The notes under the pieces: generated by a model
Told to the model about the DNA's origin: nothing
Databases searched by the model: none
Seen by the model: only the letters and a program-made list of their open reading frames with translations
Made by a program: the position numbers and the translations under genes
Part shown: positions 24,959 through 31,889 of the stretch, in pieces
Position numbering within the stretch: position 1 is the stretch's first letter
Layout: each line of letters begins with the position of its first letter
From: a bacterium
GTDB lineage: Bacteria > Vulcanimicrobiota > JABDET01
Direction of reading: 5' to 3'
Length of the DNA: 64,000 bases
Assembly: GCA_021817145.1 (NCBI GenBank)
Contig: JAKAVV010000003.1
Coordinates: 1-64,000 of the forward strand

Positions 24959-25246
24959 TTACGAAGGGGAGCCGCCTGAAGGAATTGTTCCAGGAGCTAA
25001 AGGTGAAGAACACCTTGGGCAAAAGCGGGCTTCAGTATCTTGTGGAACATATTGACAGGTAGGACAGGTTAATGGTTTTTTGTGTCCATTTTCTGAAAAA
25101 GCATAATTGTGGAGATCTTCTTGAGTCGCTTTTTTAAACTCTTTTACTCCTTGTCCAAGCGATTTTGCCATTTCAGGAAGCCGTTTCGGTCCGAAAAGAA
25201 TGAGCGCAACAGCCCCAATTACGATAACATCCTGCCAATCTAGCAT
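24959..25246 (-). CDS. TatA/E-like translocase subunit with C-terminal zinc ribbon
   Basis: The ATG at 25246 has RBS GAGGAGG; an upstream in-frame codon is less likely. The N-terminus is a standard TatA: MLDWQDVIVIGAVALILFGPKRLPEMAKSLG, with a membrane helix, the FGP hinge and an amphipathic helix, shown here in overlapping pieces VIVIGAVALILFGPKRLPE and MAKSLGQGVKEFKKA. The C-terminus carries two CxxC pairs, CPTCQYVP and FCPRCSSPL, forming a zinc ribbon that is not part of ordinary TatA. The protein probably forms the Tat pore; the ribbon may bind metal or another protein. tatC is not in the window. Confidence 0.82.
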   Translation of the reverse strand: MLDWQDVIVIGAVALILFGPKRLPEMAKSLGQGVKEFKKATQEDLHNYAFSENGHKKPLTCPTCQYVPQDTEARFCPRCSSPLAPGTIPSGGSPS

Positions 25247-25469
25247 GGTTAATCCTCCTCTGTTTTTCAACCGTTAAACCTATGTAATTTTCAGCAATTT
25301 TAAATTTTTTCCTGCTAATTTTTATTTGTCGTTATTCCCAAGCAAAAATGCCATCAGTTTTGTCACGCGATTATTTCATGGTGTTTTTGTCATCCTTAAT
25401 TTAAAAGAGGAGATTAAAAGAGGTGTTTAGAAATATACGATTCATTATTTTATTTTAAGGAGGGTATGT

Positions 25470-28429: not shown

Positions 28430-29008
28430 TTAAGCGTGAAAATCATTCGTGCGATCATAAGCCGCAGCTTTCTTTAATTTTTTTTCACAGTCCGCGCAAA
28501 ATAGAGATGATTTTTGATCAATGTCATAAATCGTGCTAGAATAATAGAGGACGCAGTGGCGGTTGTAACAGTGTTTTAATCCTAAGATATGAGATAATTG
28601 ATGGACCGCTTCCTTTAATAGTCTATCAAAAAGGGGATTCTCTCCATTTTGATAAGCGTAAAATTCGGGGCTAAGACGATAATAACTTGTCAAAGCGATT
28701 TTTTCATTCAGATTAGCATCCCCAAAAACAGTGTTTAAAGAGCTGCTGTACAAATCAAGTCGAGTAATCCCCAGCGAATATTTAACATCCTCATGGAAAG
28801 ACAACTTCGCTTTATTCATTAAAGCAGGGGCAAAATACTGTTTCTTAACCGCGTTAAAGGCGCTGGAAGGGGGCGGGTAATTTGAAGAAACCAGAAATTT
28901 ATACAAAAACCTTTCTTCTAAGCAGCAAATAAGCCTGTAAAGAAGCCGTAAATCCACTTCTCCAATTGTGAAGACACCGATTTTCATATCATTCACCTTT
29001 TGCGCCAA
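28430..29008 (-). CDS. Archaemetzincin-like protein with Gln in place of the catalytic Glu
   Basis: 192 residues. The C-terminal part matches archaemetzincin: zinc motif HQLSHILGLKHC, then CVLYYSSTIYDIDQK and LFCADCEKKL with the second zinc-binding cysteines. The three His and four Cys are intact, but the base catalyst of HExxH is Gln (codon CAA). In metzincins this change abolishes peptidase activity while keeping the fold. N-terminal KIGVFTIGEVD and LGITRLDLYSSSLNTVFGDAN also fit. It lies 70 bases downstream of the two ATP-grasp genes on the same strand and may bind, rather than cut, the modified product. Confidence 0.8.
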   Translation of the reverse strand: MAQKVNDMKIGVFTIGEVDLRLLYRLICCLEERFLYKFLVSSNYPPPSSAFNAVKKQYFAPALMNKAKLSFHEDVKYSLGITRLDLYSSSLNTVFGDANLNEKIALTSYYRLSPEFYAYQNGENPLFDRLLKEAVHQLSHILGLKHCYNRHCVLYYSSTIYDIDQKSSLFCADCEKKLKKAAAYDRTNDFHA

Positions 29009-29078: not shown

Positions 29079-30014
29079 TTATTTATTTCCTTGATTTAAA
29101 AGATGACATAAAGCGTCTGTAATCGGCTCTGGGGAAGCCAATCCAAAATTAGTTTTTCTTTCATAATAGATGTAAACAGGAGATGGATTCGCTTCAAAAC
29201 AGTAAAATTCTCCTTCAGGAGTCATTCTTAGATCAATTCCTGCGAGCGGTAAATTGAGTCCGTATGCCACTGTAAAACAGGCTTGAGCGATCTCTTCGGG
29301 TAGATCAAATCTTTTCATGCTGGTGGTACGGTCATAACGATAGTCGGACTCCTGCGCGCAAATTTCTGAAGCAAAAATTTCCTGACCGACCACATGAACT
29401 CTAATATCAATTCCATCAATACACTCTTGGACTTGAACAGGCGAGTAGCGCAGTGTATCAAGACGCTCAAAATCTTCTTCTTTCATTTTTCTCACAATGG
29501 ACCTAACAGAGCTGATGGATTTGTAGATTACCTCTCCTTTGTGATTTTCATAGAATTCTTTAATGGCTTCTGGATCATTGGTAACCAGTGTTTTAGGAAC
29601 CTGAAGTCCAAGAGCCTGGATTAAGCGAATTTGATTTGGTTTAGAAGCATTCGAACGGGAGGCAGAAGGACGGTTTAAGACCAGAAAATTCCCATATTCC
29701 AACAGCCAGGTTAATGTGATTAAACATTCAGAATTGACGAAATCAATCTCTTTTTGTTCGTACTGGTCATATACTTCAAAATAGCCGACCCCTGGCCTAG
29801 CATAGATGCTGCGAATTTCATTAAACAAAATTTTTTTTGAGTTTTCCAGAAGGAAATATCCTGTTATTTCATCCCCTTTTGCTTCCATGATGATTTTGAT
29901 GGTGTTTGGAATATCTGACTGCTCAATCATAATGGCATCCATCCCTCTGGAAATAAGGGATTGATAGAGATGGGTTACAATGGTTTCTTGATTTGATCCC
30001 AGAACAAGAATCAT
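29079..30014 (-). CDS. ATP-grasp ligase, graspetide-maturase (MvdC/MvdD)-like, probably active
   Basis: 311 residues. The N-terminal half (about 1-130) resembles the pre-ATP-grasp domain of RiPP maturases, with LFNEIRSIYARPGVG and the NRPSASRSNASKPNQIRL stretch before the ATP-grasp core. The core has VIYKSISS (ATP-binding Lys), VQECIDGIDIRVHVVG and the metal triad in GIDLRMTPEGEFYCFEANPS (Asp, Glu, Asn). Known relatives join carboxylates of Glu/Asp to Ser/Thr or Lys side chains in peptides; glutathione-synthase/RimK-type ligases are the alternative. Its ATG overlaps the stop of the next-upstream ATP-grasp gene. Confidence 0.75.
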   Translation of the reverse strand: MILVLGSNQETIVTHLYQSLISRGMDAIMIEQSDIPNTIKIIMEAKGDEITGYFLLENSKKILFNEIRSIYARPGVGYFEVYDQYEQKEIDFVNSECLITLTWLLEYGNFLVLNRPSASRSNASKPNQIRLIQALGLQVPKTLVTNDPEAIKEFYENHKGEVIYKSISSVRSIVRKMKEEDFERLDTLRYSPVQVQECIDGIDIRVHVVGQEIFASEICAQESDYRYDRTTSMKRFDLPEEIAQACFTVAYGLNLPLAGIDLRMTPEGEFYCFEANPSPVYIYYERKTNFGLASPEPITDALCHLLNQGNK

Positions 30015-30955
30015 GATATAGGGTTTCCTTGTTCTAAAAGGTTTAAAATTGATCTTCCGATGAGTGAATCCCCGTGTTCATTCGTAAAAGTTAAAACAGG
30101 CAGACTGACAAAAGGGTAAACTCCAAGCCCTTGACACTTCCCATCAGGGGTTATTCGAAGTCTGATTTCTAGAAGGGGAATATTGATATCTCGCGCCAAT
30201 TGGAGAGACTGGAATTTCCAATTTTCTTCTAAAGAATAGAGGGACAGGTTAACAGTCCCAGTTTGACTCAGAGATTCTTCAAATCCGAAAGTTTCTTTTC
30301 CGACAGTAACTAGACGGATTACTTTTCCTGGGGAGTATTCTTCAAAATGGACAGGGCAGTAAGAGATTTTTTCGATTCTCTGGAGATCTTGATTTGTCAT
30401 TTTTTTAAACATTGCATCTGGGTCCTTAACATGTTTATAAATAACCTGACCCTTCCAGGTTTGATAAAATTCTTTGGCTTTTTCGGGATCGCTTGTAATT
30501 AAAAAATGCGGGGAGTCAAATCCGTATTTTTGAAGCAGGAGAACAGCCCCTCCTCTTCCCATAGAAAGGTCAATTTTAGGGAGAGGATTTAAAACAGAGC
30601 ATTGATGAGATAAGCTGGCAGCAGCAGCCAGAAGAGCTGCCCAACCTTCTGTTTGAACATATTGTTTGTCTTTCTCTGAAAGCTCGGTGAATCCATAAGC
30701 TGATACAAACTGATTTTCCATGCAGAGTCCGCTGATCTCACTGAAATTCAAACCCGACCCATCAGGCAGGATAAAACTTCCTTCTATCTGATTCTGATTT
30801 ATTGAAAAAGTGAGTTTGGTTTGAGTTAAAAAAGTCTCCTGCTGGATGAAAACAACCGGCTTAGAACTGCGGCTTGACAAATACTGCAGCAAATATGAAA
30901 TCACCGGGTTAGCCGGTGATCCATAAACAAGAATGGAGGATTTTATCGAACCCAT
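30011..30955 (-). CDS. Second ATP-grasp protein with degenerate metal site (pseudo-ligase)
   Basis: 314 residues, aligning end to end with the downstream ATP-grasp protein. Conserved: the FSEISG strand, VIYKHVKD, FEEYSPGKVIRLVTVG. In the metal loop, EIRLRITPDGKCQGLGVYPF replaces GIDLRMTPEGEFYCFEANPS: Asp to Arg, Glu to Gly, Asn to Tyr. It is therefore probably unable to bind the catalytic magnesium and may act as a substrate-binding or allosteric partner. It begins 31 bases after the Lys/Glu-repeat gene. Confidence 0.7.
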   Translation of the reverse strand: MGSIKSSILVYGSPANPVISYLLQYLSSRSSKPVVFIQQETFLTQTKLTFSINQNQIEGSFILPDGSGLNFSEISGLCMENQFVSAYGFTELSEKDKQYVQTEGWAALLAAAASLSHQCSVLNPLPKIDLSMGRGGAVLLLQKYGFDSPHFLITSDPEKAKEFYQTWKGQVIYKHVKDPDAMFKKMTNQDLQRIEKISYCPVHFEEYSPGKVIRLVTVGKETFGFEESLSQTGTVNLSLYSLEENWKFQSLQLARDINIPLLEIRLRITPDGKCQGLGVYPFVSLPVLTFTNEHGDSLIGRSILNLLEQGNPIS

Positions 30956-30986: not shown

Positions 30987-31889
30987 TTAAAAGAATCGGG
31001 ATGAACCTCCTAAACCTCCTAAATTGGGCTGCATTTGACCCCCTAATAATCCGGAGAAAGGACTGCACATACATCCAAAAGGTGAAGAGAAAGACATCAT
31101 CATCATCATGAGCATCATCATCATTTCCATCAGCATATAAAGTTCCATGGGATTCATTCCGCCGCAGCCAGGGGGAGGTCCTTCAGTTTCTTCTTTTCCC
31201 TCTTTGCCCTCTTTGGCTCCCCCCCCTTCTTTTGTTCCACAAGTATCTTTTTCTTTAGCGTTTTCTTTCCCCTCTTTTCCTTCTTTTCCAGTCTCCTTGA
31301 TTTCTTTCTCTTTTTCTTCTTTCCCCTCACCTTTAATGCCAACCCCGTCTTTTTCCTTTATGTCTTCTTTACCTTCTTTCCCCTCTTTAATACCGCCGTG
31401 TTCTTTAATGTCTTCTTTCCCCTCTTTGCCAAACTCTTTTACTCCTTCTTTTCCGCTTTCTTTCAGGGCGCTGTGCTCTTTTATGGCTTCTTTTCCGCCT
31501 TCTTTAATGCCACTGTGTTCTTTTATTCCTTCTTTTGCAGACTCTTTTACATCTTCTTTCCCTTCTTTGCACTCCTTGCTTTCTTTAGATTCCTTCCCTT
31601 CTTTTGCATCCTCTTTAACCGCTTCTTTCCCCCCTTCTTTCCCTTCTTTTTCTTTGACATCATGTTTTTCAGAAGCGGTCATTTTTTCATCAAGCCGCAT
31701 TTTTTCAATGGTTTCCTGTTTTTCAGCCCCTTTTTCCCCGCTTTTTTCGAGCAATTTCTCTTGATTTTGTTTTTCTTCCAGTTTTTCTACCCCTTTTTCT
31801 GAGGCGCTCATTTTTTCTGAGCCTTTAATCGGACCTGTTTTGATTAAGTCAGGCCTTAATTCTGATGTGATAAATAATCCTGTTGTCAT
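30987..31889 (-). CDS. Lys/Glu/Gly-repeat protein with poly-Met, Cys-containing tail (candidate ATP-grasp substrate)
   Basis: About 300 residues; the ATG at 31889 follows a GGGGGTG RBS, with a GTG three codons upstream as alternative. Residues about 1-25 form a non-repetitive leader (TTGLFITSELRPDLIKTGPI). Residues about 25-240 are almost only Lys, Glu and Gly with a few Ser, Ala, Ile, Val and His, in units such as GKEAIKEHSALKESG and KEGKEDIKEHGGIKEG. The C-terminus has PPPGCGGMNPMELYM, a run of about 17 residues that are mostly Met, PFGCMCSPFSG and a Gly-rich end. Placed first in the operon before two ATP-grasp genes, it is a candidate precursor whose Lys and Glu side chains are joined. A plain disordered stress or metal-binding protein is the alternative. 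Confidence 0.7.
   Translation of the reverse strand: MTTGLFITSELRPDLIKTGPIKGSEKMSASEKGVEKLEEKQNQEKLLEKSGEKGAEKQETIEKMRLDEKMTASEKHDVKEKEGKEGGKEAVKEDAKEGKESKESKECKEGKEDVKESAKEGIKEHSGIKEGGKEAIKEHSALKESGKEGVKEFGKEGKEDIKEHGGIKEGKEGKEDIKEKDGVGIKGEGKEEKEKEIKETGKEGKEGKENAKEKDTCGTKEGGGAKEGKEGKEETEGPPPGCGGMNPMELYMLMEMMMMLMMMMMSFSSPFGCMCSPFSGLLGGQMQPNLGGLGGSSRFF
31200..31680 (-). repeat. Degenerate repeats encoding KEG units
   Basis: The plus strand is a run of TTCTTT, CCCTCTTT and TTCCTTC variants at irregular spacing, reflecting AAA/GAA/GGA codons. Unit lengths vary between about 9 and 45 bases, so slippage and unequal exchange are likely. The strand bias (pyrimidines on plus) is extreme. Confidence 0.7.

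What the first reader, a model, noticed from the sequence alone, without database searches (positions are those of the whole stretch)
30011..30955. One of the two ATP-grasp proteins has lost its metal triad
Aligning the two proteins, the active one has Asp, Glu and Asn in GIDLRMTPEGEFYCFEANPS. The other reads EIRLRITPDGKCQGLGVYPF, so Asp becomes Arg, Glu becomes Gly and Asn becomes Tyr. The fold-keeping residues around them are conserved. An active plus pseudo-enzyme pair suggests that the pseudo-copy recognises the substrate or controls the other.
Basis: partly seen in the sequence, partly recalled or inferred. Interest (0 to 1): 0.55.

Follow-up and report, generated by a model that had tools for sequence, protein, structure and literature searches.

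The report
Dead-plus-live ligase pair with tagged substrates
A bacterial enzyme that stitches peptide side chains together always travels with a catalytically dead sister copy, and next to the pair sits a protein carrying a short shared tag and a lysine/acid-rich tail that is its likely target.

Summary
P0001 (30011-30955, minus) lacks the Asp/Glu/Asn triad (R265, G278, Y280) that its neighbour P0002 keeps. It is not recent decay. All 8 complete P0001 orthologues in the phylum (titles name Eremiobacterota) lack the triad, dN/dS is 0.146, and the predicted fold is an intact graspetide synthetase. In 80 wider relatives plus one viral-collection contig, the active ligase keeps Lys/Asp/Glu/Asn in 80 of 81. 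A homologous degenerate partner sits beside it in 79 of 80 assessable loci, and none keeps the triad. A truncated inactive partner was already reported for 'branch 8' graspetide ligases (PMC8939145), whose precursors could not be predicted.

What I found beyond that: the protein beside the pair, including the peptidases of those loci, carries a tag F-[I/V]-x4-R-P in 76 of 77 assessable loci and in 5 of 5 held-out loci. FI-x4-RP occurs in 2 of 2967 other ORFs. Next to the tag lies a segment of Lys with Glu/Asp and almost no Arg. In the window this protein is 30987-31889.

Best reading: a heteromeric graspetide-type ligase with an obligate dead subunit, tag-guided, making Lys-Glu/Asp isopeptide links in protein tails. 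Pairing and tag are shown; chemistry and dimer are inferred.

The parts
30011..30955 (-). P0001, pseudo-ATP-grasp partner (A), 314 aa, graspetide-synthetase fold without the metal/ATP triad
   Evidence: AF2 pLDDT 88.1; best PDB matches are graspetide synthetases, Z 25.0 to 7mgv_A over 299 residues, rmsd 3.4
30110..30169 (-). degenerate triad segment EIRLRITPDGKCQGLGVYPF (residues 263-282; R265, G278, Y280)
29079..30014 (-). P0002, active ATP-grasp ligase (B), 311 aa
   Evidence: (best PDB sequence match 7drm, PsnB, E 1.5e-27); AF2 pLDDT 80.8, Z 26.5 to PsnB 7drp_A over 288 residues, rmsd 2.6
29181..29240 (-). intact triad segment GIDLRMTPEGEFYCFEANPS (D261, E274, N276)
30011..30014 (-). 4-nt ATGA overlap: stop of A with start of B (translational coupling, inferred)
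   Evidence: same junction type ATGA/GTGA/TTGA in 56 of 72 wider loci
30987..31889 (-). P0003, KE-repeat protein, likely substrate; ATG at 31889 by homology (ORF opens at GTG 31898)
31851..31874 (-). tag F-I-x4-R-P (FITSELRP) near the N-terminus of P0003
31182..31817 (-). Lys/Glu-rich repeat region (EK, then KE repeats; 42-nt tandem unit in part), putative cross-linked core
30990..31181 (-). Met-rich hydrophobic segment and conserved C-terminal SRFF
   Evidence: C-terminal RF[FL] in the relatives

Best explanation
P0001 and P0002 form one heteromeric graspetide-type synthetase. P0002 is the catalytic subunit. P0001 is an ancient paralogue that keeps the fold, has lost ATP/metal chemistry and serves as an obligate partner subunit, replacing one protomer of the dimer or stabilising and activating the ligase. 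The complex acts on a dedicated protein encoded beside it (here P0003), which it finds through the tag F-[I/V]-x4-R-P at the N- or C-terminus. The active subunit phosphorylates Glu/Asp side chains in the neighbouring Lys/acid-rich segment and lets Lys side chains attack. The result is isopeptide (macrolactam) links along the tail of the protein. Shown: partner homology, triad loss and conservation; pairing; tag; Lys-not-Arg segment. Inferred: complex formation, leader-like use of the tag, isopeptide chemistry, and what the stitched tail is for.
For: (1) Partner: in 81 loci (80 kept of 191 confirmed; one from viral contigs) a homologous degenerate partner directly precedes the ligase in 72 and lies a short gap upstream in 7 more; L082 starts inside the ligase and L071 is a decayed cluster. 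Triad: 0 of 79 complete. A and B distances correlate, r = 0.89, 0 of 1000 permutations as high. (2) Tag: F[IV]x4RP in the upstream protein in 69 of 81 loci, in a downstream gene in 5, in an extension of the ligase in 2; of the 5 without, 4 are cut by contig ends and 1 is decayed. Background 2 of 2967 other ORFs >=100 aa for FI-x4-RP; 0.21 expected in shuffles of the 74 tagged proteins. Held-out set fetched after the motif was fixed: 5 of 5 distinct loci with a partner have it directly upstream and nowhere else in about 10 kb; 2 of 2 relatives without a partner lack it. In 20 genomes searched with the 22-row HFI...RPDL tag profile, 18 had 1-2 matches each. (3) Core: in the 26 GC-rich tagged proteins with a >=50% K/E/D stretch, that 40-aa segment holds 351 K, 33 R, 222 E, 132 D, while the rest of the same proteins holds 313 K, 1283 R; only Lys, not Arg, can be an amide donor. 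(4) Precedents: CorB (TIGR04187) makes KxxxD isopeptides in five repeats of a ~22-kDa precursor, and MirB needs a copurifying partner protein (PMC13097080, abstract, sections 7 and 10, passages); ThfB accepts its leader moved to the C-terminus and cyclises whole proteins (PMC13003496, PMC12291112, passages).
Against: No chemistry or complex was tested, and no heteromer could be modelled. P0002 scores 136 bits against a 350-bit cut-off for TIGR04187. Only 42 of 74 tagged proteins have a 40-aa window with >=50% K/E/D, and some (L077, L130) have no such tail. The K-to-acid spacing i+4 seen in corallotide is enriched in 5 of 7 phylum proteins and 50 of 62 others, but not in the window protein (ratio 1.1; its enriched spacings are +1 and +5). 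The Lys bias could partly reflect low-complexity AAG/GAG repeats. Two tag calls (L059, L062) lie in extensions of the ligase ORF and may not be the same thing. The motif was defined on the 81 loci before being counted there; only and L040 are held out.
Confidence: 0.62

Rival explanations
1. The pair acts on the tagged proteins, but by another ATP-grasp chemistry: links between molecules (polymers, attachment to a surface or injection apparatus), or addition of amino acids to side chains or termini as in RimK.
For: RimK is the next structural neighbour after graspetide synthetases (Z about 18-21). Payloads are whole enzymes and structural proteins (S8, M6 and M64 peptidases, kelch, DUF6519, CIS13), for which attachment would make sense. 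Two neighbour proteins match eCIS_core.
Against: Graspetide synthetases rank first for both models. The segment is a near 1:1 Lys:acid mixture (351 K to 354 E+D in the GC-rich set), as links within a chain would need.
Confidence: 0.22
2. The peptidases and other upstream proteins are not substrates. They supply peptides to the ligase, and precursors lie elsewhere (the view in PMC8939145 for branches 7 and 8).
For: That paper found peptidases of unrelated families and predicted no precursor (passages).
Against: The same tag is shared by peptidases, kelch proteins, injection-system-like proteins and proteins that are only tag plus KE repeat, as in the window. Tag-profile matches were 1-2 per genome in 18 of 20 genomes.
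Confidence: 0.05
3. P0001 is not dead but has a new activity, using other residues of the old pocket.
For: It keeps the full fold and has its own conserved residues, e.g. E263 at the position of B's G259 and a YxQxExWA helix motif.
Against: The wider partners lack K125 in 79 of 80 rows and the stretch around B165 in 58 of 80 rows, too little for a shared ATP site.
Confidence: 0.1
4. P0001 is a recently decayed duplicate without function.
For: None found beyond loss of the triad.
Against: Triad loss in all 8 orthologues and 79 wider partners, dN/dS 0.146, confident fold.
Confidence: 0.01

Closest known systems
'Branch 8' (and 7) ATP-grasp loci of Makarova et al. 2022 (PMC8939145; abstract, outline, section 6 part 2 and passages read)
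   Same: Graspetide-type ATP-grasp encoded with a truncated, catalytically inactive ATP-grasp; peptidase genes of unrelated families in the loci.
   Different: They predicted no precursors and suggested the peptidases supply peptides. Here the neighbouring proteins, peptidases included, share a tag and often a Lys/acid tail. In the window's phylum the partner is full length. Identity with branch 8 is by description only; their tree and tables were not available to me.
Corallotide synthetase CorB/CorA, graspetide group 15 (PMC13097080)
   Same: TIGR04187-type ligase, large repetitive precursor, KxxxD isopeptide repeats.
   Different: One ligase, no dead partner named in the parts I read, hydroxylase present, precursor not fused to enzymes.
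Rosaritide MirB/MirC (PMC13097080)
   Same: Ligase unstable alone and active only with a copurifying partner protein.
   Different: The partner is a PPIase/chaperone-like protein, not a dead paralogue.
Microviridin MdnB/MdnC (MvdC/MvdD) and PsnB
   Same: Fold; PsnB is the best sequence match; microviridin loci also carry two paralogous ATP-grasps.
   Different: Both microviridin ligases are active (recalled), and the precursors are short peptides.

Membership tests
Graspetide synthetase (catalytic subunit P0002) | graspetide-synthetase fold with pre-ATP-grasp domain | tested here: met
   Z 26.5 to PsnB 7drp_A, 288 residues, rmsd 2.6; 7drm E 1.5e-27 by sequence
Graspetide synthetase (catalytic subunit P0002) | conserved ATP/metal residues and DxR motif | tested here: met
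   K125, D261, E274, N276 in 80 of 81 loci; D203-x-R205 invariant in 9 of 9 phylum sequences
Graspetide synthetase (catalytic subunit P0002) | NCBIfam TIGR04187/04184/04185 curated cut-off | tested here: not met
   136/103/100 bits against cut-offs 350/475/425: a relative, not a member of those models
Graspetide synthetase (catalytic subunit P0002) | forms ester/amide links between side chains | not testable with these tools
   needs mass spectrometry
Graspetide precursor (P0003 and tagged proteins) | conserved recognition motif next to the ligase gene | tested here: met
   F[IV]x4RP in 76 of 77 assessable loci and 5 of 5 held-out loci
Graspetide precursor (P0003 and tagged proteins) | core with donor (Lys/Ser/Thr) and acceptor (Asp/Glu) residues | tested here: inconclusive
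   Lys/acid segment clear in 42 of 74; i+4 spacing not enriched in the window protein
Graspetide precursor (P0003 and tagged proteins) | short peptide with cleavable leader | tested here: not met
   303 aa here; the 74 tagged ORFs, some cut by contig ends, are 103-1395 codons, often with enzyme domains
Makarova branch 8 | adjacent truncated inactive ATP-grasp | tested here: met
   79 of 80 assessable loci have an inactive partner; many are shortened, those of the window's phylum are full length
Makarova branch 8 | placement in their ATP-grasp tree | not testable with these tools
   their tree and tables are in supplements, which could not be read
Pseudoenzyme | fold kept, catalytic residues lost, conserved in orthologues | tested here: met

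The most novel reading that the evidence does not exclude
A widespread protein-level graspetide system: a two-subunit synthetase, one subunit a pseudoenzyme, reads a short F-I-x4-R-P tag and stitches Lys-Glu/Asp isopeptide links along charged tails of whole enzymes and structural proteins. The 'missing precursors' of branch 8 are then the tagged proteins themselves.
Probability: 0.5. Interest if true: 0.85.

Novelty: new variant of a known kind. Interest (0 to 1): 0.72.

Why it matters
Published work on these ligases noted the inactive partner but could not name a substrate. A tag of four fixed residues, present beside nearly every such pair across cyanobacteria, proteobacteria, acidobacteria, actinobacteria, the window's phylum and archaeal bins, makes the substrate question directly testable. 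If the isopeptide reading holds, it would be a natural, tag-guided way to staple protein tails, with possible use in protein engineering. It would also be a clear case of a pseudoenzyme subunit kept in a RiPP-type ligase.

Tried and rejected
Recent decay: rejected (orthologues, dN/dS). Peptide precursor hidden in a small ORF: not pursued once the tag was found; no separate small-ORF search was made. A plasmid-borne home: tblastn of P0002 in plasmids returned only matches below 60% identity (35 of 74 records Streptomyces; listed names include tgmB and MvdC/MvdD), with no close relative. Conserved operon neighbours that would tell the function: none; the tally over 57 neighbours was scattered, and archaemetzincin and Nramp beside the window pair recur only in the sister species among the loci I held. 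Solved structure with the tag peptide: no sequence match for a 30-aa piece. K-to-acid i+4 spacing as a universal rule: not met in the window protein. Literature: searches showed, in their listings, no paper on the tag or on a KE-tail substrate for such a pair; only open papers are held and supplements could not be read. Carter et al. (PMC13097080, section 7) list new graspetide groups (32, 34, 35, 41) with diverse proteases, long repeat precursors or copper amine oxidases that may overlap this set; I could not check.

Drops and limits: one search kept 80 of 191 confirmed relatives. One search aligned 58 of the 74 tagged proteins, and searches scanned those 58. Alignment A3 was selected by the motif, so its conserved F, I, R, P prove nothing. 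L170 and L171 are the same contig and were counted once. Some phylum loci occur both under G handles and under contig names (L050-L055, L103); one search counts them twice, one search does not.

Full report
1. Check. P0001 (30011-30955, minus) and P0002 (29079-30014, minus) are paralogues (27% identity, E 2e-32). Pfam gives P0002 a RimK hit and P0001 nothing above a curated cut-off. NCBIfam places both near MvdC/MvdD/SAV_5884 graspetide maturases, below their cut-offs.

2. Conserved in the phylum. A search of 118 related genomes found the pair in the sister species (73% identity) and in further families of the phylum. Record titles of the same contigs name Eremiobacterota (one title says Armatimonadetes). 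All 8 complete P0001 orthologues lack the triad, while 9 of 9 P0002 orthologues keep it. The stop of A and the start of B coincide. The ligase clade is patchy: 8 of 149 genomes of the phylum. P0001 dN/dS is 0.146, P0002 0.087.

3. Structure. AlphaFold2 models: P0001 pLDDT 88.1, P0002 80.8. The closest solved folds of both are graspetide synthetases: P0001 to 7mgv_A Z 25.0 (299 residues, rmsd 3.4), P0002 to PsnB 7drp_A Z 26.5 (288 residues, rmsd 2.6); RimK comes next. So P0001 is a whole synthetase fold without the chemistry.

4. Wider family. The P0002 profile found 191 relatives in genome contigs (80 kept) and 1 in viral contigs. An ORF of roughly 220-340 codons ends at or near the start of the ligase in most. 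Iterated profile search from the P0001 family recovers all 72 such ORFs, and 7 more lying a gap upstream; the only other non-ligase hit among 8154 ORFs is one weak one of 23 bits. Of the 72, 59 keep none and 0 keep all of D/E/N; the ligases keep K/D/E/N in 80 of 81. The 7 others read Q/D/N. Partner and ligase distances correlate at r = 0.89, 0 of 1000 permutations as high. This correlation includes shared ancestry. One cluster (L071) is broken in tagged protein, partner and ligase together.

5. Likely substrate. Directly upstream of P0001 lies P0003: tag, then EK/KE repeats, then a Met-rich stretch ending SRFF. In the phylum the same kind of protein, starting MSDLFIxxxxRP or MTTGLFITSELRP, is next to the pair in the 8 pairs where it can be seen: in full in 7 (window, L032, L033, L034, L037, L039, L040) and as a cut fragment in 1 (L036); it is not assessable in L035. 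In the wider family the neighbour is diverse: of 58 scanned, 6 S8 peptidases, 5 kelch, 3 M6, 1 M64, 2 DUF6519, 1 CIS13, 1 putidacin-like lectin, 1 PqqD. F[IV]x4RP is present in 76 of 81 loci; 4 of the 5 misses are cut by contig ends and 1 is decayed. FI-x4-RP is in 2 of 2967 other ORFs, one of which is a second tagged protein; with V allowed it is 8 of 2967, three of these being tagged proteins. The tag lies within 87 residues of the C-terminus in most, but at the N-terminus in the phylum and in L085 and L101.

6. Held-out test. After fixing the motif I searched relatives of three hit genomes and fetched ten stretches. Two were already known and two were the same contig. Of 7 distinct new ligase loci, 5 have the partner and all 5 have the tag directly upstream and nowhere else in the stretch. 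The 2 lower-scoring relatives have neither partner nor tag. Partner and tag thus go together.

7. The tail. In the 26 GC-rich tagged proteins with a >=50% K/E/D stretch, the segment holds 351 K, 33 R, 222 E and 132 D, against 313 K and 1283 R in the rest of the same proteins. Glu and Asp are interchangeable; Lys is not replaced by Arg. That is what Lys-carboxylate amide links need. K-to-acid at i+4 is enriched in 5 of 7 phylum and 50 of 62 other proteins, but i+1 more often still (57 of 62), and the window protein shows no i+4 enrichment.

8. Comparison with print. PMC8939145 (abstract, outline, section 6 part 2 and passages read) reports for branch 8 a truncated inactive ATP-grasp, peptidases of unrelated families and no predictable precursor. 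The dead partner as such is therefore known; the tag, the neighbours as substrates and the Lys/acid tail are, in my searches, not described. PMC13097080 (abstract, sections 7 and 10, passages) gives KxxxD isopeptides and a required partner protein in other graspetide systems. PMC13003496 and PMC12291112 (passages) show that a leader works from the C-terminus and that whole proteins can be cyclised.

9. Verdict. Observation confirmed; interpretation partly supported. The most likely mechanism is a heteromeric, tag-guided graspetide-type ligase acting on protein tails. Membership: a relative of graspetide synthetases by fold and residues, not a member of the curated maturase models; the substrates fail the 'short peptide with cleavable leader' feature.

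Noticed in passing
28430-29008 (-): Archaemetzincin-like protein next to the pair reads HQLSHxxGLKH: the Glu of the (recalled) HExxH zinc motif is Gln, also in the sister species. A second possibly dead enzyme beside the first.
   Followed up: partly
L049 7886-8884 (G000:C32): A third, single ATP-grasp with intact residues in the window's genome, flanked by two similar Q/N-rich proteins of 217 and 228 aa on the opposite strand.
   Followed up: no
L071: Desmonostoc cluster in which tagged protein, partner and ligase are all broken: they seem to decay together.
   Followed up: partly
L062 3567-4928; L073 6944-7429: The tag is joined to a PqqD-like domain (one Pfam/NCBIfam PqqD match among the scanned proteins; the L062 domain is named by eye), in L062 as an extension of the ligase itself.
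   Followed up: no
L092, L094, L129, L130: Possible links to contractile injection systems: DUF6519 and CIS13 matches among tagged proteins and eCIS_core matches among two neighbours (which loci hold which match is my reading of the sequences).
   Followed up: no
30987-31889 (-): Repeat number of the KE region differs between the two species by insertions/deletions while both ends are conserved.
   Followed up: partly
24959-25270 (-): Small TatA-like protein with a C-terminal zinc-ribbon-like pair of CxxC (named by eye, recalled).
   Followed up: no
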